DNA of 64,000 nucleotides, from NCBI GenBank assembly GCA_947478845.1, contig CANJXC010000001.1:186001-250000 (forward strand), read 5' to 3'. The position numbers and the translations under genes were made by a program. The notes beneath the pieces were generated by a model that saw only the letters and a list, made by a program, of their open reading frames with translations, ran no database searches and was not told the origin of the DNA. Below are positions 1,145-16,450 of this stretch, piece after piece (the stretch's first letter is position 1; each line of letters begins with the position of its first letter). This DNA comes from Spirochaetales bacterium (GTDB lineage Bacteria > Spirochaetota > Spirochaetia > JABEVK01).

Positions 1145-2287
1145 CTAATTTCCCACTCTCACTACCCGGCCGAACGGGAACACGGCGGCGCCACCCTTAG
1201 GAACCAGCCACAGTACAGGGTATCTGTAGTCTTGTTCAGGAAACGTTCCATAGCCGTCTGTGAAGTAGATGAGGCAGTCCGGCCAACCCGCAGCGCCGGC
1301 TGCGTCTTGCTCGATCCAATCGAACACTGGCCGAAAGTCTGTACCGCCTCGCCCGGCCACCGTCCGATTGGCAAAGGTGGTGGTAGAGAGCTCCCATGGC
1401 TCGAAAGCCTCTGCTTTGTGAACTTTGGCATCACACTCAAGTAGAACAAGTTCAGATTCCGCCACAGCACGTAGGGCGTCGAGGTAGGCAAGTGCCTCTC
1501 CCAAGAGTTCAACAGACATCGACCCGGACGTATCGATGGCAGCCACGATACGTTTTGGGCCGGGGACACCAAGTGAAGGCAGGTAGAGTCCTTGCCACAG
1601 GTGCTTCTTGTTGGCTGGGAAGAAACGAAAGTCCGAACGGCTCAAACCCTGAACAAATTGGGCCAGGTAGGACTTCCAGTCGAAACGGGGTTCGCTACCC
1701 TTGGATAGTTCTTCACTCCAAAGTCCCGCTTGCCTACCCTGCAATTCAGAACGTACGCGGGCTGCGAGTTCGATCCGAAGCTTTCTTAGGTCGTCCGGAC
1801 TGGGCGCGTCTTGGTCCCTATTGTTCAAGGAGAGGGCGTCACCCGACTCAAGGTGAATATCCCAACCTTGCTTGCGCTGTGGGTCCTTGACCAGAAGATC
1901 ATAGATGTCCTCTGCGGTCAGTCTGCGAAACTTGTAGTCCTGAAGGCGGCTGCTCGGTAGGGTGAAGCCGGTCTCGAGAAGGCACTGGTTGGTGGCGTAG
2001 TCAATTGCCTCATTCCATATTCCAGGATCGCGGCTCCTACGTCGTTCGATGTGCCCAAAAAGGCAATGGAGAACTTCATGAGCCAAAACCCCGATGGTTT
2101 CGTCCGGAGTCATAGTCCTCACAAAGTCCACGCAGTAGAAGATGTGGTAGCCATCTGTGGCCATGGTAGCAACTACGGCAGAGGGCACCTCAAGTATTGG
2201 GAACCGGGCCACGGCCGCCGCCAGAAAGGGGAACTCGAGCATTAGTCGAAGTCGTGCCCGAAGAACCTCGGGCATCAACTCTTTCAA
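1145..2287 (-). CDS. Metallopeptidase-like/VWA protein (DUF2201 type), partner of MoxR
   Basis: A 380-residue protein. The N-terminal half carries an HExxH zinc-binding motif with a third histidine (HEVLHCLFGH, about residues 89-98). The C-terminal half carries a VWA-like MIDAS motif (AAIDTSGSMS). This order, a putative metallopeptidase followed by a VWA-like domain, is that of DUF2201 proteins, which are usually encoded next to a MoxR ATPase. Its ATG overlaps the stop of the MoxR gene as ATGA, so translation is probably coupled. MoxR/VWA pairs are generally thought to remodel or load partner complexes. Here the partners would be the RT, methyltransferase and DUF499 ATPase of the same operon, which is inference. 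Whether the HExxH domain is an active protease cannot be told from sequence. Confidence 0.85.
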   Translation of the reverse strand: MKELMPEVLRARLRLMLEFPFLAAAVARFPILEVPSAVVATMATDGYHIFYCVDFVRTMTPDETIGVLAHEVLHCLFGHIERRRSRDPGIWNEAIDYATNQCLLETGFTLPSSRLQDYKFRRLTAEDIYDLLVKDPQRKQGWDIHLESGDALSLNNRDQDAPSPDDLRKLRIELAARVRSELQGRQAGLWSEELSKGSEPRFDWKSYLAQFVQGLSRSDFRFFPANKKHLWQGLYLPSLGVPGPKRIVAAIDTSGSMSVELLGEALAYLDALRAVAESELVLLECDAKVHKAEAFEPWELSTTTFANRTVAGRGGTDFRPVFDWIEQDAAGAAGWPDCLIYFTDGYGTFPEQDYRYPVLWLVPKGGAAVFPFGRVVRVGN

Positions 2288-3267
2288 ACGAGGAACTCCT
2301 TGTGTTTCGCGACGAACTCCCGGTACCCTGCCTCGCGGACAAACTTCGCGTCAGCTCTGATGAGATCCCTAGCCAACAGCACGGCGATCTCTGGACCGAG
2401 ACGACTCAACAACGTTGCCGCGGCCGACCTCACCTCGGGACGTTTGGCCCACGCTCCCAGGTAGGAAACTAGCGCGTAGAGTGCGCCTAGGTCTTCGGGA
2501 AGCTTGGCCCCAGTCGGGTCGGCGATGATGGATTGGACCAGCTTCTCAGTGATGGTATCCCGGCAATATGCCAAGAACTCGATTGCGACCCCCTCACCAA
2601 CAATTCCGGGCGCGATGTCGTCTAAATCGTTGGCTGTGCCGAAGCGGTCCAATGCGGCCGACAGCATCTCCCAGGATCTGGGGGTTGCAAAGGCTCTGGA
2701 AGCGTCACCAAGATCGAAAAGGAGTTTCGGCTTAAAGGTCAGAAAGGCAAGGACAAGGGGGTGGATTCCATGCTGCTGGGCCCACACTCGCCAGTCTGAG
2801 GCGTCGACTTCAAAGTCGAGGTGAACAAACCGATTCGCCAAGGCTGAGGGCATCCGGAACACGACCGAGCGATCCTCAGCCCGGTTTCCGGCAGCAACAA
2901 TTCTCCAGCCTTCCGGAAGCACGTACTCGCCGACCCGCCGATCGAGGGTCAGCTGATAGAGGCTGGCCTGAACCAAAGGTGGCGCAGCGTTGAGCTCGTC
3001 AAAGAACAGAACTCCCTTCGAGTCGGGCTCATGTGGCAGGAACGACGGCGGGTACCAGACTGCCTTGCCGCTCGTAACGGCGGGCAGGCCTCGTAGATCT
3101 GTTGGATCAAGCAGCGACGCACGGAGGTCGATCAGGTTCCAACCAGCCTTGGCGGCCACTTCACGCACGACGGAACTCTTGCCCACACCTGGCGGCCCCC
3201 AAAGAAAGACGGGCCAGCGGGTCTGCAATAGTTCTTCAAGGACATGTGCGACTCTGGTGGGTTTCAC
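2284..3267 (-). CDS. MoxR-like AAA+ ATPase
   Basis: A 327-residue AAA+ ATPase. The Walker A is GPPGVGKSS at about residues 24-32, the Walker B is LFFDELNAAPP, and a sensor-type segment IVAAGNRAED follows. The C-terminal helical lid is of normal length for the MoxR family. It starts 10 bases after the preceding gene and its stop overlaps the start of the VWA/DUF2201 gene by four bases, the classic MoxR-VWA pairing. Such ATPases act as ATP-driven remodellers that hand substrates to the VWA partner. In this operon it is the likely motor of the retron-associated complex, which is inference from gene order. Confidence 0.88.
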   Translation of the reverse strand: MKPTRVAHVLEELLQTRWPVFLWGPPGVGKSSVVREVAAKAGWNLIDLRASLLDPTDLRGLPAVTSGKAVWYPPSFLPHEPDSKGVLFFDELNAAPPLVQASLYQLTLDRRVGEYVLPEGWRIVAAGNRAEDRSVVFRMPSALANRFVHLDFEVDASDWRVWAQQHGIHPLVLAFLTFKPKLLFDLGDASRAFATPRSWEMLSAALDRFGTANDLDDIAPGIVGEGVAIEFLAYCRDTITEKLVQSIIADPTGAKLPEDLGALYALVSYLGAWAKRPEVRSAAATLLSRLGPEIAVLLARDLIRADAKFVREAGYREFVAKHKEFLV

Positions 3268-3277
3268 GGAGTACCTC

Positions 3278-4171
3278 TCATAGGAATAGGGTGTCGATTG
3301 CTAGCGACTGGTGTCGAAAGCATTCATCGGGAAGTTCGAGTGCTGGTAGGTTTTTCATCGGTATTGATTGCCAAGTCGCCAACGAATCCGAGGTCGGCGG
3401 TTGGAATAGATCTAGGGCTTTCGAACCTGCGTCTCCAACGTCCTCCAACTGGACCCAAAGACGAGATTCGGCCGAATGTAGAACGGCTCGCGTGGTCACA
3501 AGGGCATCGAGTCGCATCAGGCTCTCCGTGGTTGTCGTCGAAAGTGACACTTCGTTGTCGGTCACTCTGACTTCGAGCCCGAGAGAAATTGGAGAGAGAC
3601 CCTGCGGAAGGAATCGTGCTTCCTGTTCGAAGCGATGCCTGTTGATGGACTCGGCGGGGGCAAGGACAATTTCCATTTTCCGCGCGTCGAGCTTCAACTT
3701 TGCCCGGCTCTTGTCGCCGAGCAAGCCTTGGAGGTGGCCGCTGACCGGGCGCAAACCTGGTGCCCAATAGAAGGAATCCGGTTTGTCGTGCCGCGGCAAT
3801 GGAAACGCAAAGCTCTCGCGAAACACGGGCTCACCACCATCAGATCTCAACTCGACACCCGAGTCCTTGTTGGCGACTCCCGAGCGACAAACTCTCAGTG
3901 TGGGTAGGGCAATGAGCTCACAGAACGCAAAACTGATCCAGAAGGCCGCGGTTTGGCGGTCAAGGTCGACGAGGTTGAAGGGTTCAATGAGCGTACCGGT
4001 GCTCGCGGAAAGCTGCTGCAACCACGGTTCCGGCGATGGCGCCTGAAGTTTGCGCAGGTAGCCCTGTAGTGCCTCCTGAAGGTTCCGACGAACCCCCTCG
4101 TCCGGGTAATGGAAAGCTTGGTCCACGAGGATTGGTAGTCGAGTGGGAAAGCTGTATGCCTGAACTAGCAC
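3278..4171 (-). CDS. Unrecognised operon protein between methyltransferase and MoxR
   Basis: A 297-residue protein that I do not recognise. It has no signal peptide, membrane helix or obvious catalytic motif. The C-terminal two thirds look beta-rich with alternating polar and hydrophobic stretches; the N-terminal 80 residues look helical. Its start overlaps the methyltransferase stop by seven bases and it ends 10 bases before the MoxR gene. It is therefore an integral member of the operon, perhaps an adaptor or substrate-recognition subunit for the MoxR/VWA pair (inference only). Confidence 0.8.
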   Translation of the reverse strand: MLVQAYSFPTRLPILVDQAFHYPDEGVRRNLQEALQGYLRKLQAPSPEPWLQQLSASTGTLIEPFNLVDLDRQTAAFWISFAFCELIALPTLRVCRSGVANKDSGVELRSDGGEPVFRESFAFPLPRHDKPDSFYWAPGLRPVSGHLQGLLGDKSRAKLKLDARKMEIVLAPAESINRHRFEQEARFLPQGLSPISLGLEVRVTDNEVSLSTTTTESLMRLDALVTTRAVLHSAESRLWVQLEDVGDAGSKALDLFQPPTSDSLATWQSIPMKNLPALELPDECFRHQSLAIDTLFL

Positions 4172-4941
4172 GTGGCAAACCTCTCGACGGCTCGAGCGTA
4201 GGATTCAGGGTCGAGTTCCCAACCGGCCGATCGTCTGTTAAGACTTCTGGCAACTTCTAGGGTGTTCCCATACCCCATGAAAGGGTCCACTACGAGATCG
4301 CCTGGCTCTGAGAAGAGTAAGATCAGTCTATGTACGACAACTCTCGGGCTACCCCACACATGATCCGTCTTGCGGTGTGGCGACCAGAGCGTCCACACAG
4401 GCTCTACTAGCTTACGTGGGTCATCTTCTAGCTCAACGAGCGCACTTCTTTGTCGAACTTCGTTCCCTGACGCGAACACTAAGAACTCTTCGTAGTCGTC
4501 CGCGAGGAACGATCCGACGACCGGACGCCCGACGAATGCAAGGCGGCGGCGATACGAACTCTGTCCCGGTCGCCAGGCAACCCGAGTGATGAGAGAGAAG
4601 CCGCTAGAAAGCATGAGGTCCCAGTGAGTCGGGACCAATGGTAGCAAACTTCCCCCGTAGCGGAGATCCCGGATCTGGAGAATCGCCACGCCGCCAGGCT
4701 TGAGAACACGCTTCATCTCGCGGTAGACTGGGCGAAAGGAGAGTGCGAAGGAGGTCACTAGTTCGAGGACTTTTCGCGTATCCGCCTGTTTGTTTCGGGG
4801 CGCCTTAAGCAAGGGCGCAACCTCTGCTGGGAAATATGGAGGGCCGGTCATGATGAGGTCCACGGTCTGGTCGTCAAGACTCTCCATGCGCTCGGATGTT
4901 CCAAGATGAAGCAGTGGCTCCGGACCGGAATTTTCCTTCAT
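4165..4941 (-). CDS. DNA methyltransferase (N4-cytosine/N6-adenine type)
   Basis: A 258-residue SAM-dependent DNA methyltransferase. The catalytic motif is DLIMTGPPYF near residues 29-38, a TSPPY-type motif IV. The SAM-binding motif VVDPFMGYGNT lies near the C-terminus. Motif IV before motif I is the beta-class order. The exact base modified cannot be decided; TSPPY-like motifs occur in N4-cytosine enzymes and in some N6-adenine enzymes. It is short and has no obvious target-recognition domain. Its ATG overlaps the RT stop codon by four bases. It may mark host DNA as self, or modify the retron's msDNA; both are inferences from operon membership. Confidence 0.88.
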   Translation of the reverse strand: MKENSGPEPLLHLGTSERMESLDDQTVDLIMTGPPYFPAEVAPLLKAPRNKQADTRKVLELVTSFALSFRPVYREMKRVLKPGGVAILQIRDLRYGGSLLPLVPTHWDLMLSSGFSLITRVAWRPGQSSYRRRLAFVGRPVVGSFLADDYEEFLVFASGNEVRQRSALVELEDDPRKLVEPVWTLWSPHRKTDHVWGSPRVVVHRLILLFSEPGDLVVDPFMGYGNTLEVARSLNRRSAGWELDPESYARAVERFATC

Positions 4942-7829
4942 GAGCCAGCCAGCTTTGCCAGCAAAGTGTCAGCTTCTTTTGGTCGGGTAACCCTCAGGAA
5001 GGCAAGGTGCCCTCTCAGCGTTGCGTCACTGATCGGTTGGCCGTCGCGCATCACGACTTTGCCTTTCTTCTTGGCGTCGACCATCGCTCGCAAGCGACGA
5101 CGTTCGTCTCTCGCCAAGGTTGCCTTTTCGTTGACTACAAGACCGGTAACGGTCTGCCGCCGCCCTCTTCGGAAGATACCGGTCTTCTGATGGGCCAAAC
5201 GATAGCCGTGGGACTTCAGTACCTTTGAGACAAACGGCAGCAGACTTGGTGCACCTTCGTCCTGGCTCGATAATGTCAGGTCGTCGGCGAAGCGGGTGTA
5301 GACGACGCCAAGCCGATCGCAGACCGTGGAAAGTGCCCTGTCCGCCTGCATCAGGATGTAGTTCCCCAGAGCGGGACTGGTAGGAGCTCCAATGGGAAGT
5401 GCCCCACCCTGAGAACAGAGCTCAGCGACAAAGTGGCGAGCCAAAGGCGAAAGGCTTCCGCCCCAGAGGTCGCTGACGGCCCCCAGAATCGCTCCGTATC
5501 TCGTCGAAGGAAAGAAGCTTTCGATGTCAACTTTGACGACCACGCGCTGCCCCTCATGGGGACGTGCATTGTCAACAATCGAGTACCCAGAGCGAAAACC
5601 AGTTGCCGCTCGGTGCGGGACCAATTGGGCAATCGCCTTGTCGAGCAGAACTCGCTGAAGTGCCTTAAGAAACTCAGCTGGTTCGCTGATCTTTCGGCGC
5701 TTGCCGTCCTTCTTGGGAATTGTGTAGGTGCGGTAGTGCTCGTCAAAACCGGTACCGGGCGCAGCGTCGTTCGGCTTCTGTGCGAACAGGCTGAGTAGCA
5801 GAGGGTGCCAGTTCCAGCCGAGGCGACAGGCCAGTTCAAGACAGGCGAAATGGATACGATGGTTGGAGAGGATGCGACTCAGCCCGGGAAGGAATTTTAG
5901 GGCTTCTCCGGACTCGACAGGTAACTTGGCAGGGTCTGCCTTTCCCCAGCCACCAAGGGCTGTCAGGGCCAAGAGCGCCCCTCTGTCGGCCGGTTTGACG
6001 GCAGCGAGTTCGAGGACCAGCCTGGCGCGAAGCAGCTTGTCGGCTAAAGCTCCCTCAAGAAGCCCAGACTCCGACGCAGCGACAATTACTTGAGCGACAT
6101 GGCGAGGAGGCAGTGCCCCGCGATTCAGCTCAAGCAGGTCTCTTGCATAGAACCATACAGTTTGGAACTCAGTTGCATCAGCCTTGGCTGCAGCATCCAG
6201 GAGTTTCCAGGCTTTCTTTGGTTTCTGGAGCAAGAGCTCGAGAAGCTCCCGCCTGTGGCCAATCTGATGAAGCATCGGCTTAGCTGCATACCTAGGGCTC
6301 GAGAGCAGGGTGACGAGCCAATCGAGGTCCTTAATCTCTGGGTAGTCAGTCAAGAAGGCAATGACGACCGGAGCCCTCATCTTGGTGGGAATGAGTTGCC
6401 ATAGAAGGTCTGGATTTGCAACCAAGAAGCGCGACAATCCCCGTGTAAGCTCCGTTCGCTTGGCCTCTGGAACCGATCTCATTCCCCATCGGAACTTGGG
6501 TTGCAGCTTTGGAAACTGCTGCAAGAGTTCTGCGCCCGCCTCCGCAGACACGAGCAGGTCAAGAACATCAAGAGTTTCCACCTTGTAGGGAACGGGGCGA
6601 ATCTGTGTGATGACGACCTTCTGCATCCATTCTGGCAGGATTCGTGCCAACTGTCGGCTTGGTCGGGACCTCCAGATCTTGAGAAGCTGCCCTTTTCCAA
6701 GGTGCTTCTCAAGCCTGTCGAGAATGTTTGACTTCTGGGCTTCCGGGGATGCGACAAGGAAAAGTCGCTGAACTACTTCCCCGTAGTGAACCCGATTGAG
6801 AAGTTCAAGTTGTTGCTTGGTTCCCAGTTTCCTCATTTCTTGGCGTAAGACATGGTTCGAGGTCCCGGCGACCAAAGCCTCACGTTCGGCTTGCAGAAGT
6901 CGGATCAATAGGGAGGCCCAAAGTGCTGAAAAGTGCGCACTGTACCGCCGAGCTGACCAGATGCTCTTTGCCAGCGCACTTGGACTGCCTTGCTTCTCAA
7001 GGTGGGCTTCCCAAACTTCATGGTTGCGGTACCCGACAATGCCAGCTAGCCCTTTAGGCCAACGACAAAGAGGTGCTTCGCTATCAGACAGGAAGTTTCT
7101 TGTCTCGGGTGTTTCACGGAACCTCAACGGAGTAGCCACTACGAGGGCTAGAGCATTTGGCGTCAGCAAGATTTCCCGAAAGGTCTCGTGGAGGACAATA
7201 CAACGTAACTCAGAAGTTAGCCCCGCGACGGACTTGATGCTGAGGCGACGGAGTCGACCAGCTGAGGTTTCGGCGACGACATATTCTAGGGCCGCTGCGA
7301 GCTGTCTCGAGTCTTCAAAGTCAATGGTCTTCCGAGCAAGCTGAAGATGGCTCTCGACTGAAAGGTCCGGTGCGGGCTGAACCCTGAAGTAACCGTTTGG
7401 GTAGTCAGCCCAAGAGGCTCCGAAGAGTTCACTAAGCAACGACCTAGGCGTGCAGCCGCCCGGCTGCCCCAATGTTGTCCAGGAACGTTGTGAAGGAACT
7501 CGCTGCAGCAAGAACTCGGTGAACGGCTCAAGCTTAGTCCAAGTTTTCGATTGCCGCCGTAGGAAACTGAGATCTTGGAGGAGCCGCTGCCAGGCAATCG
7601 CTTGTAGTTCACTCGAGTGACCCAAAGAGACCGTAAGGTCGGTCTCGATGCGCCACCGACCAGAGCGGTTCCATCGGTGCAATCGCCGCCAGGCCAAGTG
7701 CGCCGCTCTGGCGAGTTCTGCCTCAAGAAGACGGGGCGACGATCGACGGGTCCAGGGCTGTTCTGCACACCAGGTTCGGAGTTCGTGGAGGTAAGCATTG
7801 ATCAAGTCATTTACGGTCTGCTCACGCAC
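4938..7829 (-). CDS. Retron-type reverse transcriptase with long N-terminal extension
   Basis: A 963-residue protein if started at GTG 7829, which has an AGGAG site nine bases upstream (7839-7843). An earlier in-frame GTG at 7862 lies inside the ncRNA end repeat and is less likely. The RT domain occupies about residues 696-963: NARPH (about 754-758, fitting the retron NAxxH motif), VKVDIESFF with the first catalytic Asp, GAPTSPALGN, the catalytic FADDL (Asp 849/850) and VTG (about 894-896), which fits the retron region-Y motif. About 690 residues precede it, mostly helical, leucine-rich and repeat-like (possibly HEAT/ARM), with no recognised catalytic motif. Typical retron RTs are 300-400 residues. 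It lies directly downstream of a retron-like ncRNA and heads the operon. Confidence 0.92.
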   Translation of the reverse strand: MREQTVNDLINAYLHELRTWCAEQPWTRRSSPRLLEAELARAAHLAWRRLHRWNRSGRWRIETDLTVSLGHSSELQAIAWQRLLQDLSFLRRQSKTWTKLEPFTEFLLQRVPSQRSWTTLGQPGGCTPRSLLSELFGASWADYPNGYFRVQPAPDLSVESHLQLARKTIDFEDSRQLAAALEYVVAETSAGRLRRLSIKSVAGLTSELRCIVLHETFREILLTPNALALVVATPLRFRETPETRNFLSDSEAPLCRWPKGLAGIVGYRNHEVWEAHLEKQGSPSALAKSIWSARRYSAHFSALWASLLIRLLQAEREALVAGTSNHVLRQEMRKLGTKQQLELLNRVHYGEVVQRLFLVASPEAQKSNILDRLEKHLGKGQLLKIWRSRPSRQLARILPEWMQKVVITQIRPVPYKVETLDVLDLLVSAEAGAELLQQFPKLQPKFRWGMRSVPEAKRTELTRGLSRFLVANPDLLWQLIPTKMRAPVVIAFLTDYPEIKDLDWLVTLLSSPRYAAKPMLHQIGHRRELLELLLQKPKKAWKLLDAAAKADATEFQTVWFYARDLLELNRGALPPRHVAQVIVAASESGLLEGALADKLLRARLVLELAAVKPADRGALLALTALGGWGKADPAKLPVESGEALKFLPGLSRILSNHRIHFACLELACRLGWNWHPLLLSLFAQKPNDAAPGTGFDEHYRTYTIPKKDGKRRKISEPAEFLKALQRVLLDKAIAQLVPHRAATGFRSGYSIVDNARPHEGQRVVVKVDIESFFPSTRYGAILGAVSDLWGGSLSPLARHFVAELCSQGGALPIGAPTSPALGNYILMQADRALSTVCDRLGVVYTRFADDLTLSSQDEGAPSLLPFVSKVLKSHGYRLAHQKTGIFRRGRRQTVTGLVVNEKATLARDERRRLRAMVDAKKKGKVVMRDGQPISDATLRGHLAFLRVTRPKEADTLLAKLAGS

Positions 7830-7851
7830 GAGGACTGTCTCCTGAAAAAAA

Positions 7852-8045
7852 GCTGGTTCCACCCACTAAAAGTTTTGACGTGGAGTGCGCAGCGGCGAGA
7901 GGGGCGCTCGCGACTCTCGCGAAGGGATCTTGATCGCTTATGCGAGAGGAGTGAGCGCCCCTCTCGCCGCGAGCAGATTCAAGAAATCTCCTCACGAACA
8001 ACACCCCTGACGAAACATCAGGGAATAATCTGGGTGGAACCAGCA
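7852..8045 (-). ncRNA. Retron msr-msd non-coding RNA
   Basis: The ends are a perfect 14-bp inverted repeat, 8031-8044 (a1) and 7852-7865 (a2). Read on the minus strand, between them lie two small msr-like hairpins: 8005-8023 (6-bp stem, 7-nt loop) and 7971-7993 (8 bp around one mismatch). A long msd-like hairpin follows at 7892-7970: an 18-bp perfect stem (7892-7909 with 7953-7970), an internal loop, a 7-bp stem and an apical hairpin containing two GATC sites. A G directly follows a1 (position 8030) and could be the branching guanosine. A promoter ends just upstream and the RT gene begins 23 bases downstream, so order and structure fit a retron. The exact msd boundaries are not determined. 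Confidence 0.9.
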
Positions 8046-8052
8046 AGAATAC

Positions 8053-8081
8053 ATTATTGATGGAAGACCCCATTCATGCAA
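8053..8081 (-). promoter_or_regulatory. Promoter of the retron ncRNA/operon
   Basis: On the minus strand a -35-like TTGCAT (8076-8081) is followed after 17 bp by AATAAT (8053-8058), five of six matches to the -10 consensus. The expected transcription start is about 8045-8047, one to three bases before the a1 repeat of the ncRNA. This places the 5' end of the transcript where a retron ncRNA should begin. The RT operon is probably transcribed from here too, by read-through. Confidence 0.65.
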
Positions 8082-8148
8082 CCATTTGTAATCCCTGAAT
8101 GCTACGCCCGAGGTGGAGTCGTGGCTCGAAGGTCGGTTGAGTCATGAT

Positions 8149-8790
8149 TCAGCGACCACCACCAGAACCTAGTCTTGCGGACTGCTTCTGACTCAGTGCC
8201 TCCAGATCGTTGATGACCTGCTTGGCTGCTCCGGGTCCAGCATCGGTTGCAGCAGCCACGGCTGCCTGGAAACCCTCGAACGAGTAGTAGGCTCGCCGCG
8301 AATGAGTTTCGTCGAAAAAAGCAAAATGATCGAGTTGCTCAAATAACCCGATGGGAGAAATCATCGGCTGCAGTTCAAACTCAACCGGAGCCATTGAATC
8401 CCTGCGGTATGGACTCGTTGCGGGAAAGAGGATACCCATCCACTCAAGAAGTCGCTGAAAAGGTACCTCAATGTGAACCATCCAGAGTTGACGACGTAAG
8501 GTGATAGCCGAAGTCCCGTCGCTAGCCTCCTCGAGAACTGGCATTTGTTCGGGCAAGAAGCCAACTGAGCGGAACGAATCAACCGCGACCGAGGCGATGG
8601 TGTGCTGAGAGCTGACCGAAGTCTTCTTGCCCAAGATGTTGTTCTCGACAACTTCGGTACCGAGGTCGAACTGTGAGTCGTGGGCCATAAGTTCCATGAC
8701 TTTCGTGAGGTCCTCGAGCATCATCGTGCGACTGTTGTGGACACCCGAACTGCCGGTTCGGAGCCCGAAGTCAGGTTCAGTTGTGGGCAT
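8149..8790 (-). CDS. Hypothetical protein, N-terminus resembling BrxA (DUF1819)
   Basis: A 213-residue protein from ATG 8790, preceded by a good GAGGAAACC site. An upstream in-frame ATG at 8817 has no such site. The stretch MMLEDLTKVMEL, followed by ENNILGKKTS and a run of helix, resembles the start of BrxA/DUF1819 proteins of BREX systems. The rest does not clearly match, so this is tentative. The C-terminus is Gly/Ser-rich. It begins 46 bases after the preceding gene and ends about 70 bases before the retron promoter, so it may belong to the same defence locus. Confidence 0.65.
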   Translation of the reverse strand: MPTTEPDFGLRTGSSGVHNSRTMMLEDLTKVMELMAHDSQFDLGTEVVENNILGKKTSVSSQHTIASVAVDSFRSVGFLPEQMPVLEEASDGTSAITLRRQLWMVHIEVPFQRLLEWMGILFPATSPYRRDSMAPVEFELQPMISPIGLFEQLDHFAFFDETHSRRAYYSFEGFQAAVAAATDAGPGAAKQVINDLEALSQKQSARLGSGGGR

Positions 8791-8835
8791 GGTTTCCTCT
8801 GGAGCGGAGTCTAGCATGGACCGCGAAGGTTGAAG

Positions 8836-9780
8836 TCACAACGAGTATCCTTCCCCGCTGAGAACACTTGTGGCCCATTCGGATCTGTTCCTCGACCAAA
8901 TCGCGTAATTGAGCGCGAGGCCCGGGATGTCGTGCATGGGATTCGGAAGAAACGACACATAGGCAAGCCCGGTGTGATCTGCGCCTGTGGTCCAAGCGCC
9001 AAAGTGAGGCACTAGGTCACGACACTCCTGCTCGCGCACGTTCAGGAGATTGGCTAGTCGAGTCGCCTCTGCAGAGTCGCGGAAGCCGAAGGGCAGTTGC
9101 AGCAGGCAAAAGAGCCCGCCCCCCAGTTCGGGGTGCGGCTGGTCCGTCTGGAGCTGCAAGAAGGCTGTCTTCCCGGGATGAGTTGCGGCACTAGTGGCAC
9201 CGGCGACGAGGCCAAACTCCGCTGAGAACCCTTTCGAGTCAGCAAAACAGACACAATGCCGAGACAATGCGTCTCGAACCTGGACAAAGTCAGCCTGTCC
9301 CCATTTGGAGCTGCCCTTCGCCGGTTGTTGTTCATTGAACGTGCGACGCATTCCGCCAAACAAAGCCTCGGTTGAACAGAGAATGTTGAACATCAAGAGC
9401 GGCAGGTGCAAGGTTTTCCAGGCGGACTCTCCCTCGTAGACTGTCAGACGTGAGCAGATCGTGACTCTTCGTTCGGCAAAAGTGAAAGCACTGAGGGCCG
9501 CAAAGCTGTTCATGGCGACGGCAGCCTGTTCGGAATCCAGTATTTGAGTGAGCGGCTCGGGAATCTCTGTCGTGATAGTCACAAATGCTTGAACTCGATC
9601 GTTTCCCATTTGTCCTGATGGCGGCGGCAAGACCTCAAGTCGCATGGTGTAGTTGCCATGGTCCGCAGCAATCGCCATCGGAGTACGCTTCACTCTCACA
9701 GAGGTTGGTCTCAGGACCACTTCCAAGTCCTTGAGCGGCACTCCGAGATCTTCCGCCGTTTGCTTCTTGCTGAAGAACAT
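8836..9780 (-). CDS. Hypothetical protein of the retron locus
   Basis: A 314-residue protein with no recognised domain. It has no signal peptide or membrane helix. It appears to be alpha/beta, with a C-terminal part that could be a small chaperone-like fold (speculative). Its ATG directly follows the stop of the 39-residue gene upstream (TAA then ATG), so the two are almost certainly translationally coupled. Together with the 213-residue gene downstream it forms a three-gene unit on the same strand as the retron operon. Confidence 0.72.
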   Translation of the reverse strand: MFFSKKQTAEDLGVPLKDLEVVLRPTSVRVKRTPMAIAADHGNYTMRLEVLPPPSGQMGNDRVQAFVTITTEIPEPLTQILDSEQAAVAMNSFAALSAFTFAERRVTICSRLTVYEGESAWKTLHLPLLMFNILCSTEALFGGMRRTFNEQQPAKGSSKWGQADFVQVRDALSRHCVCFADSKGFSAEFGLVAGATSAATHPGKTAFLQLQTDQPHPELGGGLFCLLQLPFGFRDSAEATRLANLLNVREQECRDLVPHFGAWTTGADHTGLAYVSFLPNPMHDIPGLALNYAIWSRNRSEWATSVLSGEGYSL

Positions 9781-11294: not shown

Positions 11295-11549
11295 TCATCC
11301 AGAGCCCTGATCCTGTCCTTCCTGACGTTTGACTGCCTCGTAGACTGCTTTCTTGATCCCTTCAGCCAAGGTCAGACCTTGACGGGCAAAGTGAATCTTC
11401 AACCTGTTCGTCTCACCTTTAGGAACCCGGAAACTTATGACCTCGGTGGTCGATGGAAGGGAACCGAAGTCCCTGTCGAGTTTGCTAAATGTATCAGCGG
11501 CCTTTCGTGCTGCGGAGTCTTGGGTTGTGACCTTTCCCCTTAGCGGCAT
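11295..11549 (-). CDS. Small DNA-binding partner of ParA (ribbon-helix-helix-like)
   Basis: An 84-residue basic protein with a central strand (VISFRVPKGETNRLK) followed by two helices, the pattern of a ribbon-helix-helix protein. It overlaps the end of the ParA gene by ten bases. Such small proteins are the usual centromere-binding (ParB-like or ParG-like) partners of Walker-type ParA ATPases. Role in element partitioning is inferred from position and fold pattern. Confidence 0.65.
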   Translation of the reverse strand: MPLRGKVTTQDSAARKAADTFSKLDRDFGSLPSTTEVISFRVPKGETNRLKIHFARQGLTLAEGIKKAVYEAVKRQEGQDQGSG

Positions 11550-12295
11550 ACTGCCTCTCCGATCCTGCGCAATTCGGCAAGAGTTTCAGGCTTTGCTGCC
11601 TTCTGCTTTGGCAACGACTGGACTGCGACGCGATCAGCCTGAGCCTTGCGGAAGCAGGGGTCTACCGGCACCGTGAAGACCTCAAACCCCTGAAGCTCCC
11701 ATGCCTGTGACATGATGGTCTTATGCTGATCAATACGCCCGTCGAAGGCGTTGACGATGATTCGCCGATGGGCCGGTCCTCTACGCATTGCCTTTTTGGT
11801 CTTTGCAAGCTCGGCAGCAAAGATGTCCATACCATCGAGCGAAAATGCCTCGGGGGTCATTGGTGTGATGGCCTCATCAGCAGCGATGAGAGCACAGCGC
11901 TCCAGGCGGCCCATTCCTGGAGACAGGTCCATGATGGCATAATCGTACCCCGCACGAGCCAACTCCTCAATCAAGTCGCAGAAGATGAAAGGCTCCGAAG
12001 CCAACTGGTTCTCTCCAAACATCTTGAGCTCACCGTCCAACCCAAATGTCGCTAGGATGTCTAACTTAGGGGTCGCAGTCGGGACGATTGCCTTCGTGAC
12101 TCCAACCCTTCCATACAGTACCGATGCGAGCTCATACACGGGTGTTTGAGTCAGAAGCCAACTGCTCGCGTTCCCTTGTGGGTCCAAGTCGATGAGAATC
12201 GTCCGTCCTTTCCGGGACAGTTCGTAGGCAACTGCTCCTGAGAGGCTTGTTTTGCCGACGCCTCCTTTCTGAAGGTGAAATGCGATTGTTTTCAT
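11540..12295 (-). CDS. ParA-family partition ATPase
   Basis: A 251-residue ATPase starting at ATG 12295 with a GGAGGTAAACGCC ribosome site. The N-terminus shows the deviant Walker A of ParA proteins, KGGVGKTS at residues 10-17, followed by ILIDLDPQGNAS. The segment YAIMDLSPGMG gives the second nucleotide-binding motif. These proteins move or stabilise low-copy DNA. Here it probably maintains the excised, replicating form of the island together with the small partner gene downstream. Confidence 0.88.
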   Translation of the reverse strand: MKTIAFHLQKGGVGKTSLSGAVAYELSRKGRTILIDLDPQGNASSWLLTQTPVYELASVLYGRVGVTKAIVPTATPKLDILATFGLDGELKMFGENQLASEPFIFCDLIEELARAGYDYAIMDLSPGMGRLERCALIAADEAITPMTPEAFSLDGMDIFAAELAKTKKAMRRGPAHRRIIVNAFDGRIDQHKTIMSQAWELQGFEVFTVPVDPCFRKAQADRVAVQSLPKQKAAKPETLAELRRIGEAVCR

Positions 12296-12379
12296 GGCGT
12301 TTACCTCCTGTATACAAGTACATTTGTTTTCGACATGTTTACAGGGTGTAATCACCGGTCGACAAATGAAAGAAAGTCT

Positions 12380-14581: not shown

Positions 14582-15028
14582 ATGCAGTTCTGGGAGACCG
14601 TCAAGTCGGAGTTGAGAAGGAAGAACATGACCCAGGCCCAGTTGGCATCTGAGGCGAAAGTTAGCCTTCGCACATTGCAGGGCTGGATTTCCAAGGGCCG
14701 GGAACCCAGCGGAAGCGAGGCTCTCGCGATTGCGGCTGCACTGAGAACCTCGCCGGCCCATTTAGTGACAGGGGTACCCGACTGGATGCGGGGGTCACCA
14801 ATCCTCTCTGGTATCCCTATTCCGGCTATGTCTGATTATGCCTTCTTCACTCGACACGAGAATCTCATCCAAGAACTGGGTGCATTGGAGCGGGAGTGGC
14901 CGGCTGAGTTTGACGAGGTAGTTACTTATGTCAAAGTGCGACTGAGAGCGAAGAGAGACCAGGCTTTCGCCCGGCAGATGGCACAGTTGCGAAAGCAGCA
15001 AAAAGGCGCGGAGATCGGCGAAGATTAG
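14582..15028 (+). CDS. Phage-type repressor (Cro/CI family helix-turn-helix)
   Basis: A 148-residue protein starting at ATG 14582 with a GGGGG site eight bases upstream. The N-terminus has the XRE helix-turn-helix: RRKNMTQAQLASEAKVSLRT followed by a recognition helix and PSGSEALAIAAAL. The C-terminal part is helical and lacks the Ser-Lys autoprotease motif of LexA-type repressors. It is transcribed away from the other island genes, across an operator with matching palindromes. Its stop overlaps the stop of the convergent integrase gene. Confidence 0.8.
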   Translation: MQFWETVKSELRRKNMTQAQLASEAKVSLRTLQGWISKGREPSGSEALAIAAALRTSPAHLVTGVPDWMRGSPILSGIPIPAMSDYAFFTRHENLIQELGALEREWPAEFDEVVTYVKVRLRAKRDQAFARQMAQLRKQQKGAEIGED

Positions 15029-16185
15029 TCCTTCCGTCCCCCACGCGCCCGGCGGAACAGGTCTTCCTCGTCAGGGTGGTCATAGCGATCGGTCATTCCT
15101 GAAGTCTTGTGTCCCATTCGGACCCGGGCAGCGTCTGCACCGCGCTCGGTGACAAACCTGGTGTTCGCCGCGTGCCTGAGGCTGTAAAGGGTACGACCTG
15201 ATCGGTCCACTCCCTCCAGTCGGTCGACACCAGCACAAAAGGCCTTACCGGCGGTGTCGACTCGAATGGGTTTGCAGACAACCACAGCCTTGCCGGCCTC
15301 GTTGAAGGTTTTCACCTTTCTAGACACCAGCAGACCGTGTCTCTTGTCTTGAGGCACTTTGTCCAGTTCTTCGGCCAGGAAGTTCGACACAAGCGCAACC
15401 TTCGCCTTTGCCCCCCGACCGGAAGTCTTAAGCCCCTTCATCTCGCCGTGGTCGTCGACAGCGCGGGTTACGTAGAATCCCCGGTGCTCGGGCCGCCAGT
15501 CTTCCCATTGAAGGGCGCTGACCTCCTGTGGGCGAAGTCCCGTGTCTGCCGCGATGAGGAAATAAAGTCCCCATTGGTCTGGCCACACTTTTGACAGATC
15601 ATCGGGGAACATCCCCAAAAGTTCGTCCCGGTTGAACGAGTCCCGACGTTCTCCGACGCTTCCGATCTTGGGGATCGTCTGGAGTGGATTCGCGCTCATG
15701 ACTCCTTTGAAGACGGCCCAGTCCCAGATCTTGGTTGCACCAAATAGAATCTTGCGGAGTCGAGCGGGACCAAGCGGCCGTTTGTCGAGTTCTTTGCGCG
15801 TCGAAGTCAAGTTCAATAGCCAGTCGTGGAAGGTCCCGGGGAGCACGGCGCTCATCTGGTACTTGCCCCACTTAGGAAGCAGGTAGTCGATCAGGATAAC
15901 CCGCAGTTCGTGCCAGTGCTTAGGCGAACGAGGTTTCGAGCCCGTCTCACGGCTTCGCACATAGCTGCACTTGCTTGGCAGAAAGAAGTCCTTGGCAAAC
16001 TCTTCGAGCTTGATGTTCTCAGAGTAGCCTCCTTGGGCTTGCCTAAGCGCCCACGCAATGGCGGTCGCCTTATTATCCTCGCCGGAGGACTTCCAGCCTT
16101 CCTCTCTTCCGGGCACTTTGACGTACCAGACGCCGCGATCTTTGGTCTTGTCCCAGGTCCTGACATCTTTCGCAGTAAACTCCAT
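15025..16185 (-). CDS. Tyrosine integrase of island 1
   Basis: A 386-residue site-specific recombinase. It starts at ATG 16185 with an AGGTGG site; a GTG six bases earlier is the alternative. The C-terminal catalytic domain shows ADTGLRPQEVSALQWED (box I Arg), then LYSLRHAANTRFV (His/Arg box) and a final MGHKTSGMTDRYDHPD with the nucleophilic Tyr. The N-terminus is an arm-type and core-binding region. The gene lies 193 bases from the 3' end of tRNA-Thr, the standard arrangement for an integrase that uses a tRNA gene as its target. Confidence 0.93.
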   Translation of the reverse strand: MEFTAKDVRTWDKTKDRGVWYVKVPGREEGWKSSGEDNKATAIAWALRQAQGGYSENIKLEEFAKDFFLPSKCSYVRSRETGSKPRSPKHWHELRVILIDYLLPKWGKYQMSAVLPGTFHDWLLNLTSTRKELDKRPLGPARLRKILFGATKIWDWAVFKGVMSANPLQTIPKIGSVGERRDSFNRDELLGMFPDDLSKVWPDQWGLYFLIAADTGLRPQEVSALQWEDWRPEHRGFYVTRAVDDHGEMKGLKTSGRGAKAKVALVSNFLAEELDKVPQDKRHGLLVSRKVKTFNEAGKAVVVCKPIRVDTAGKAFCAGVDRLEGVDRSGRTLYSLRHAANTRFVTERGADAARVRMGHKTSGMTDRYDHPDEEDLFRRARGGRKD

Positions 16186-16320
16186 ATCCACCTACGCATT
16201 CCGCGATTTTAGGTCAAAATGGCCGCCGACCCGCTGGGTCGCGATATACGAACGGTATAAGACAGCGGTTGAAAACAGTGTAACCCGACCCAGAACGATA
16301 TACAAGAGTATATGAAACAC

Positions 16321-16378: not shown

Positions 16379-16402
16379 AGCCGATGCCCGAAGTCGAATC
16401 GG
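16379..16402. other. Probable attachment site (right end of island 1)
   Basis: The 3' portion of tRNA-Thr (T arm and acceptor) is where a tRNA-targeting tyrosine integrase would recombine and leave a short direct repeat. I did not find the second copy within the window, so the other end is presumably beyond the left edge. The exact core cannot be given. Confidence 0.45.
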
Positions 16403-16450
16403 GGACCTACGCATTACGAGTGCGTTGCTCTACCACTGAGCTACATCGGC
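16379..16450 (-). tRNA. tRNA-Thr (CGT)
   Basis: A complete cloverleaf of 72 bases on the minus strand. The acceptor GCCGATG pairs with CATCGGC, the D arm is GCTC/GAGC, the anticodon loop is CTCGTAA with anticodon CGT, and the T arm is CCCGA-TTCGACT-TCGGG. The CCA end is not encoded (TCAA follows). Its 3' end faces the integrase, so it is the probable integration target of island 1. Confidence 0.95.

What the first reader, a model, noticed from the sequence alone, without database searches (positions are those of the whole stretch)
4938..8045. Retron with a promoter-matched ncRNA and retron-type RT
The sequence shows a perfect 14-bp end repeat, two small hairpins, an 18+7-bp long hairpin, and a promoter ending one to three bases before a1. 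The RT downstream has NAxxH, FADD and VTG. Established knowledge: these are the defining parts of a retron, which makes branched RNA-DNA msDNA and acts in phage defence. Inference: this retron is functional.
Basis: partly seen in the sequence, partly recalled or inferred. Interest (0 to 1): 0.85.

Follow-up and report, generated by a model that had tools for sequence, protein, structure and literature searches.

The report
Retron operon with MoxR–VWA genes
This is a real retron, a bacterial gene cassette predicted to make a hybrid RNA-DNA molecule and most likely to act in anti-phage defence, but its reverse transcriptase carries a huge unknown front half and is co-encoded with a DNA methylase, an unknown protein and an ATPase/VWA-metallopeptidase pair that I could not match to any known retron type.

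Summary
Window 7852-8044 (minus strand) folds as a retron ncRNA: perfect 14-bp a1/a2, msr hairpins and a long msd hairpin (z = -11). The a1/a2 and msd arms are the only inverted repeats of at least 14 nt within 300 nt in the 64-kb window, apart from one short palindrome. It abuts a retron-type RT with NAxxH, FADD and VTG. (1) The RT is ~963-974 aa; only the last ~265 aa are RT, and the ~700-aa N-terminus matches no family. (2) The RT heads a tightly coupled five-gene operon: RT, N6/N4 DNA methylase, unknown protein X, MoxR-like AAA+ ATPase, DUF2201 metallopeptidase/VWA protein. (3) The genome holds a second full copy, same gene order and own ncRNA, with three compensatory changes in a1/a2. Both copies lie beside other defence genes; copy 1 sits in a ~35.7-kb element flanked by a 42-bp tRNA-Thr repeat. 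The RT is not type XIII (229 bits against 584 for a true member) and forms its own deep branch. No third copy was found in ~800 related genomes, plasmids, phages or viral contigs. Best reading: a new, rare retron type with a MoxR-VWA effector module; msDNA and defence untested.

The parts
8053..8081 (-). promoter-like element TTGCAT-17 nt-AATAAT, 8 nt before a1 (tentative)
   Evidence: same geometry in the second copy; not found by the consensus scan
8031..8044 (-). a1 arm of the retron ncRNA
   Evidence: 14/14 complementary to a2; 3 compensatory changes against copy 2
8024..8030 (-). conserved GATTATT after a1; G8030 is the candidate branching guanosine (inferred)
   Evidence: identical in both copies
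8004..8024 (-). msr hairpin 1, nearly identical in both copies
7971..7993 (-). msr hairpin 2
   Evidence: fold; not kept as such in copy 2
7892..7970 (-). msd hairpin (29-nt arms 7892-7920 / 7942-7970, 90% complementary)
7852..7865 (-). a2 arm of the ncRNA, just before the RT gene
4938..7862 (-). RT gene, 974 aa as listed; likely real start GTG 7829 (963 aa)
   Evidence: PF00078 6.5e-18 at 715-904; PADLOC retron RT models; PDB retron RTs Ec86 and others
5736..7829 (-). ~700-aa N-terminal extension of the RT, no family match, mostly helical in a low-confidence model; 24% identical to copy 2
4941..5744 (-). retron RT core with NAxxH, FADD, VTG
   Evidence: 65% identical to copy 2
4165..4941 (-). 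N6/N4 DNA methylase (PF01555), ATG overlaps the RT stop (ATGA)
   Evidence: 9.4e-25; 48% identical to copy 2; junction
3278..4171 (-). protein X, 297 aa, unknown
   Evidence: no Pfam, NCBIfam or PDB match; 26% identical to copy 2; not found in 394 other genomes of the class
2284..3267 (-). MoxR-like AAA_5 ATPase, Walker A GPPGVGKSS, Walker B LFFDELN
   Evidence: 1.3e-10; 67% identical to copy 2
1145..2287 (-). DUF2201 protein: putative metallopeptidase domain with HEVLH plus VWA domain with DTSGS MIDAS
   Evidence: PF13203 1.9e-27, PF09967 4.2e-19; 55% identical to copy 2
15025..16191 (-). tyrosine integrase of the element that carries the operon
   Evidence: PF00589 4.5e-7
16379..16420 (.). 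42-bp att-like repeat in tRNA-Thr; second copy at G000:C1:166723-166764, 19.2 kb left of the window

Best explanation
A new retron type. Shown by sequence: an ncRNA with retron anatomy, an adjoining retron RT with a ~700-aa N-terminal domain, and a co-encoded methylase, protein X, MoxR AAA+ ATPase and DUF2201 metallopeptidase-VWA protein, kept as a unit in two diverged copies. Inferred: the RT copies msd into msDNA, and the RT-msDNA particle, through its N-terminal domain, holds the AAA-VWA pair inactive or serves as its docking client. When a phage disturbs or modifies the msDNA, the MoxR ring is released or engaged and drives the VWA/HExxH protein to remodel or cut host or phage proteins, stopping infection. 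The methylase probably marks host DNA or the msDNA duplex so that the cell's own state reads as 'safe'.
For: ncRNA fold and near-unique inverted repeats. RT family and motifs. Second complete copy in the same order. Overlapping or near-abutting gene junctions. a1/a2 compensation. Catalytic motifs intact in both copies in AAA, VWA and methylase. Both copies next to other defence genes, copy 1 in an integrative element. MoxR-VWA pairs are known to work together (PMC9976466) and are proposed in conflict systems (PMC7159879). Retrons act as RT-msDNA sensors gating effectors (PMC13405049).
Against: Only two copies, both in one genome. No measured msDNA. No homologue shows which protein is the effector. 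The N-terminus and X have no recognised fold. The roles of the methylase and of the AAA-VWA pair are guesses from domain names.
Confidence: 0.6

Rival explanations
1. An ordinary retron that happens to be transcribed with an independent methylase/X/MoxR/VWA cassette; the cassette is its own defence or housekeeping module and the retron RT only carries an odd N-terminal extension.
For: MoxR-DUF2201 pairs are common without any RT. Defence genes cluster in islands for many reasons.
Against: Same order in two copies on different contigs with diverged sequence and different flanks. Start/stop overlaps through RT-methylase-X and at AAA-VWA in both. Methylase plus X plus this pair was not seen without the RT in the genomes searched.
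Confidence: 0.2
2. A restriction-modification-like system: the methylase marks self DNA, the AAA-VWA machine with X attacks unmarked DNA or its replication complex, and the RT-msDNA particle is the recognition or regulatory part.
For: Dedicated methylase in the operon. A MoxR-class ATPase (CbbQ) is structurally close to McrB (PMC9976466). A very weak PADLOC type II endonuclease match for X (E = 0.048).
Against: No nuclease domain recognised in X or the RT N-terminus.
Confidence: 0.15
3. Decayed or silent retron: sequence relics without msDNA production.
For: Activity is unmeasured; promoter match is weak.
Against: All five frames and all catalytic motifs are intact in two diverged copies, and a1/a2 pairing is kept by compensation.
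Confidence: 0.05

Closest known systems
Retrons in general (Ec86, Ec78, Ec67 etc.)
   Same: a1/a2 inverted repeats, msr hairpin, msd hairpin, RT right downstream with NAxxH, FADD (YADD position) and VTG; RT core matches solved retron RTs
   Different: ~700-aa N-terminal domain on the RT; four further operon genes that match no effector I could find for a retron
Retron type XIII (PADLOC RT_XIII; ARM/WGR protein + WHSWIM protein + RT), example L010 Methylobacterium bullatum
   Same: best PADLOC RT model for copy 1; nearest RT in the tree by path
   Different: 229 / 210 bits against 584 for L010; copy 2 prefers RT_X; separate deep branch; no SWIM protein, no separate ARM protein; N-terminus shows no similarity to the L010 ARM protein
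MoxR AAA+ / VWA pairs (NorQ/NorD, RavA/ViaA, and proposed MoxR-vWA conflict systems)
   Same: AAA_5 ATPase plus VWA protein with intact MIDAS encoded side by side
   Different: VWA protein is of the DUF2201 metallopeptidase-like family and is linked to a retron; the eLife survey (PMC7159879) mentions retrons only as relatives of DGR RTs
Thermus oshimai pTHEOS01 cassette: LRV/HEAT-repeat protein - MoxR - DUF2201 VWA (L123)
   Same: closest MoxR among those compared (46% identity), DUF2201 VWA next to it, preceded by a helical-repeat protein
   Different: no RT, no ncRNA, no methylase seen; repeat protein not detectably homologous to the RT N-terminus

Membership tests
Retron (any type) | ncRNA with paired a1/a2 ends, msr and msd hairpins | tested here: met
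Retron (any type) | adjacent RT of the retron family with NAxxH, (Y/F)ADD, VTG | tested here: met
Retron (any type) | branched msDNA produced | not testable with these tools
   needs wet work
Retron (any type) | associated effector and anti-phage activity | not testable with these tools
   candidate genes in the operon only; defence neighbourhood
Retron type XIII | RT scores and groups as type XIII | tested here: not met
   229/210 bits against 584 for a true member; own branch of length 1.18, 100/100
Retron type XIII | separate ARM/WGR and WHSWIM proteins | tested here: not met
   operon has methylase, X, AAA, DUF2201 VWA instead; type definition partly from memory, example locus
Other sampled retron RT groups (I-A, I-C, III-A, VII-A1, XI/XII-like, 'other'/outgroup) | RT groups with members of the type | tested here: not met
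   tree of 28 RTs; deep forks weakly supported, and several types (II-A, IV, V, VI, VIII, IX, X among them) were not deliberately sampled as rows
MoxR-VWA pair | MoxR-like AAA+ with Walker A/B next to VWA protein with MIDAS | tested here: met
MoxR-VWA pair | physical complex of ATPase and VWA protein acting on a client | not testable with these tools
   needs purification or pull-down

The most novel reading that the evidence does not exclude
A new retron type in which an RT-msDNA particle with a built-in ~700-aa scaffold directly gates an ATP-driven MoxR-VWA metallopeptidase machine, with a dedicated DNA methylase in the operon setting the methylation state that the msDNA sensor reads.
Probability: 0.3. 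Interest if true: 0.85.

Novelty: new variant of a known kind. Interest (0 to 1): 0.62.

Why it matters
Retrons are grouped by their effectors (13 types in PMC12548924, sixteen subtypes in PMC13405049). I found none described with a MoxR AAA+/VWA machine or with its own DNA methylase. Methylation of the msDNA is a proposed retron trigger (PMC12548924), so a retron operon that carries its own methylase makes the self/non-self logic of that trigger directly testable. It would also tie retrons to the MoxR-VWA conflict machinery known from other systems, and the RT is unusually large because of its N-terminal extension.

Tried and rejected
Type XIII assignment: rejected on bit scores and tree. Homology of the RT N-terminus to a HEAT/LRV protein of a Thermus MoxR-VWA cassette, to a 1154-aa protein next to a VWA-AAA pair in G407 and to the type XIII ARM protein: none significant. 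Structure prediction of RT and of X with two-row alignments: unusable (mean pLDDT 39 and 37.5), so no fold search was made. Searches for further members: two genome-contig scans (limited by the peptide patterns chosen), viral contigs, plasmids and phages, order, class and phylum samples: only the two copies. GATC sites occur in both ncRNAs but at different places, so I draw nothing from them. Rfam has no match. The main classification paper (NAR gkaa1149) is not held, so I cannot rule out that this architecture was listed there.

Full report
OBSERVATION. The minus strand of 7852-8044 folds as a retron ncRNA. a1 (8031-8044) and a2 (7852-7865) are perfectly complementary over 14 nt, 165 nt apart, and the msd has 29-nt arms at 90% complementarity. 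Over the full 64 kb, inverted repeats of at least 14 nt within 300 nt are only these two pairs plus one 15-nt palindrome. The fold is 11 standard deviations better than dinucleotide shuffles. The RT gene follows directly. Its C-terminal ~265 aa match PF00078, PADLOC and NCBIfam retron RTs and solved retron RTs, with NARPHE, FADD and VTG at 5553-5570, 5280-5291 and 5142-5150. Rfam has no match at the locus. The promoter claim is plausible but weak: the consensus scan misses it, yet a TTG-type hexamer, a 17-nt spacer and an AATAAT/TAGAAT hexamer end 8 nt before a1 in both copies.

The ORF is 974 aa. The listed start lies inside a2. GTG at 7829, with AGGAG upstream, has an equivalent in the second copy, so ~963 aa is likelier (sequence). 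About 700 aa precede the RT core. They match no Pfam family even at E = 5, no PDB sequence and nothing in plasmids. A two-row AlphaFold run is unreliable (pLDDT 39) but almost wholly helical there.

On the same strand follow a PF01555 DNA methylase (4165-4941, start overlapping the RT stop as ATGA), protein X (3278-4171, overlapping), a MoxR-like AAA_5 ATPase (2284-3267, 10 nt later) and a DUF2201 protein (1145-2287, overlapping) with a metallopeptidase-like domain (HEVLH) and a VWA domain (DTSGS). Motif IV of the methylase is GPPY here and SPPY in copy 2; SPPY is usual in N4-cytosine enzymes (own knowledge).

The same genome holds a second complete unit on contig C6 (L004): ncRNA 5036-5225, RT 5211-8162, methylase, X, AAA, VWA in the same order. 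Identities: RT 37% overall (core 65%, N-terminus 24%), methylase 48%, X 26%, AAA 67%, VWA 55%. All catalytic motifs are intact in both. The ncRNA of copy 2 folds at z = -6.5. It keeps 14/14 a1/a2 pairs with three two-sided compensatory changes and one G-U change, and shares GATTATTCCCTGATGTYTCGTCAGGGG after a1, while the msd differs in sequence but stays a long stem. With two sequences this is supportive, not statistically decisive (61 of 500 shuffles reach it).

CONTEXT. A 42-bp perfect repeat of the tRNA-Thr gene lies at 16379-16420 and 19.2 kb left of the window (C1:166723-166764), with a tyrosine integrase at 15025-16191. So copy 1 appears to sit in a ~35.7-kb integrative element. The element also holds a DUF499 - DUF3780 - DUF1156 methylase - PLD-helicase set. 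Copy 2 lies beside a DruE-like helicase, type III restriction and methylation genes and an AAA_15/DUF3696 ATPase. This supports a defence role, by association only.

DISTRIBUTION. RT-profile searches of 7 genomes of the order, 395 of the class and 393 of the phylum (overlapping samples) found only these two full-length copies; other retron RTs matched in the core alone. X was not found in any other of 395 genomes of the class. Plasmids, phages and viral contigs gave RT-core matches of at most ~38% identity. MoxR-DUF2201 pairs are widespread without an RT. The closest MoxR among those compared, on a Thermus plasmid (46%), follows an LRV/HEAT-repeat protein, but that protein is not detectably related to the RT N-terminus. 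The two genome-contig scans were limited by their patterns, so rarity is shown for the sampled sets only.

TYPE. Copy 1's best PADLOC RT model is RT_XIII at 229 bits and copy 2's is RT_X at 224. A true type XIII RT (L010, with ARM/WGR and SWIM neighbours) scores 584. In a 28-RT tree the two copies form their own branch (100/100, length 1.18), outside all sampled groups; deep order is unresolved, and several types are not represented. So membership in retrons is met on anatomy, and membership in type XIII is not met.

MECHANISM. Shown: anatomy, co-conservation, intact motifs. Inferred: msDNA synthesis; an RT-msDNA particle acting as sensor, as in characterised retrons (PMC13405049); the MoxR-VWA pair as the ATP-driven effector, since such pairs remodel client proteins with the VWA MIDAS contacting the client (PMC9976466); the large RT N-terminus as docking scaffold; the methylase as the source of a self mark, which is attractive because phage methylases trigger some retrons (PMC12548924). 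Rivals are an independent neighbouring cassette and a restriction-modification-like device.

NOVELTY. I found no paper in the held library that links retrons to MoxR or VWA effectors. The founding classification paper is not held. I rate it a new variant (probably a new type) of a known kind.

Noticed in passing
G000:C1:166723-166764 to window 16420: ~35.7-kb integrative element bounded by a 42-bp tRNA-Thr repeat with a tyrosine integrase; also carries a ParA-like ATPase (11540-12355).
   Followed up: partly
L137:11435-19995 (continuing towards window start): DUF499, DUF3780, DUF1156 methylase and PLD-helicase genes, a candidate defence set in the same element as the retron.
   Followed up: partly
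window 8149-8817: 222-aa protein upstream of the retron with a weak PADLOC BrxA match (5e-9 over 58 residues), no Pfam match; neighbour 8836-9780 unknown.
   Followed up: no
L138:46-8404 and L004:689-4884: Second copy is flanked by a DruE-like helicase, type III restriction/methylation genes and an AAA_15/DUF3696 ATPase with two unknown genes.
   Followed up: partly
L123:4042-7422 (Thermus oshimai pTHEOS01): LRV/HEAT-repeat protein, MoxR ATPase and DUF2201 VWA cassette followed by a UvrD-like helicase; possible RT-less relative of the effector module.
   Followed up: partly
L010:256-7284: Unannotated type XIII retron (WGR/ARM protein, SWIM protein, RT) in the Methylobacterium bullatum record.
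   Followed up: partly
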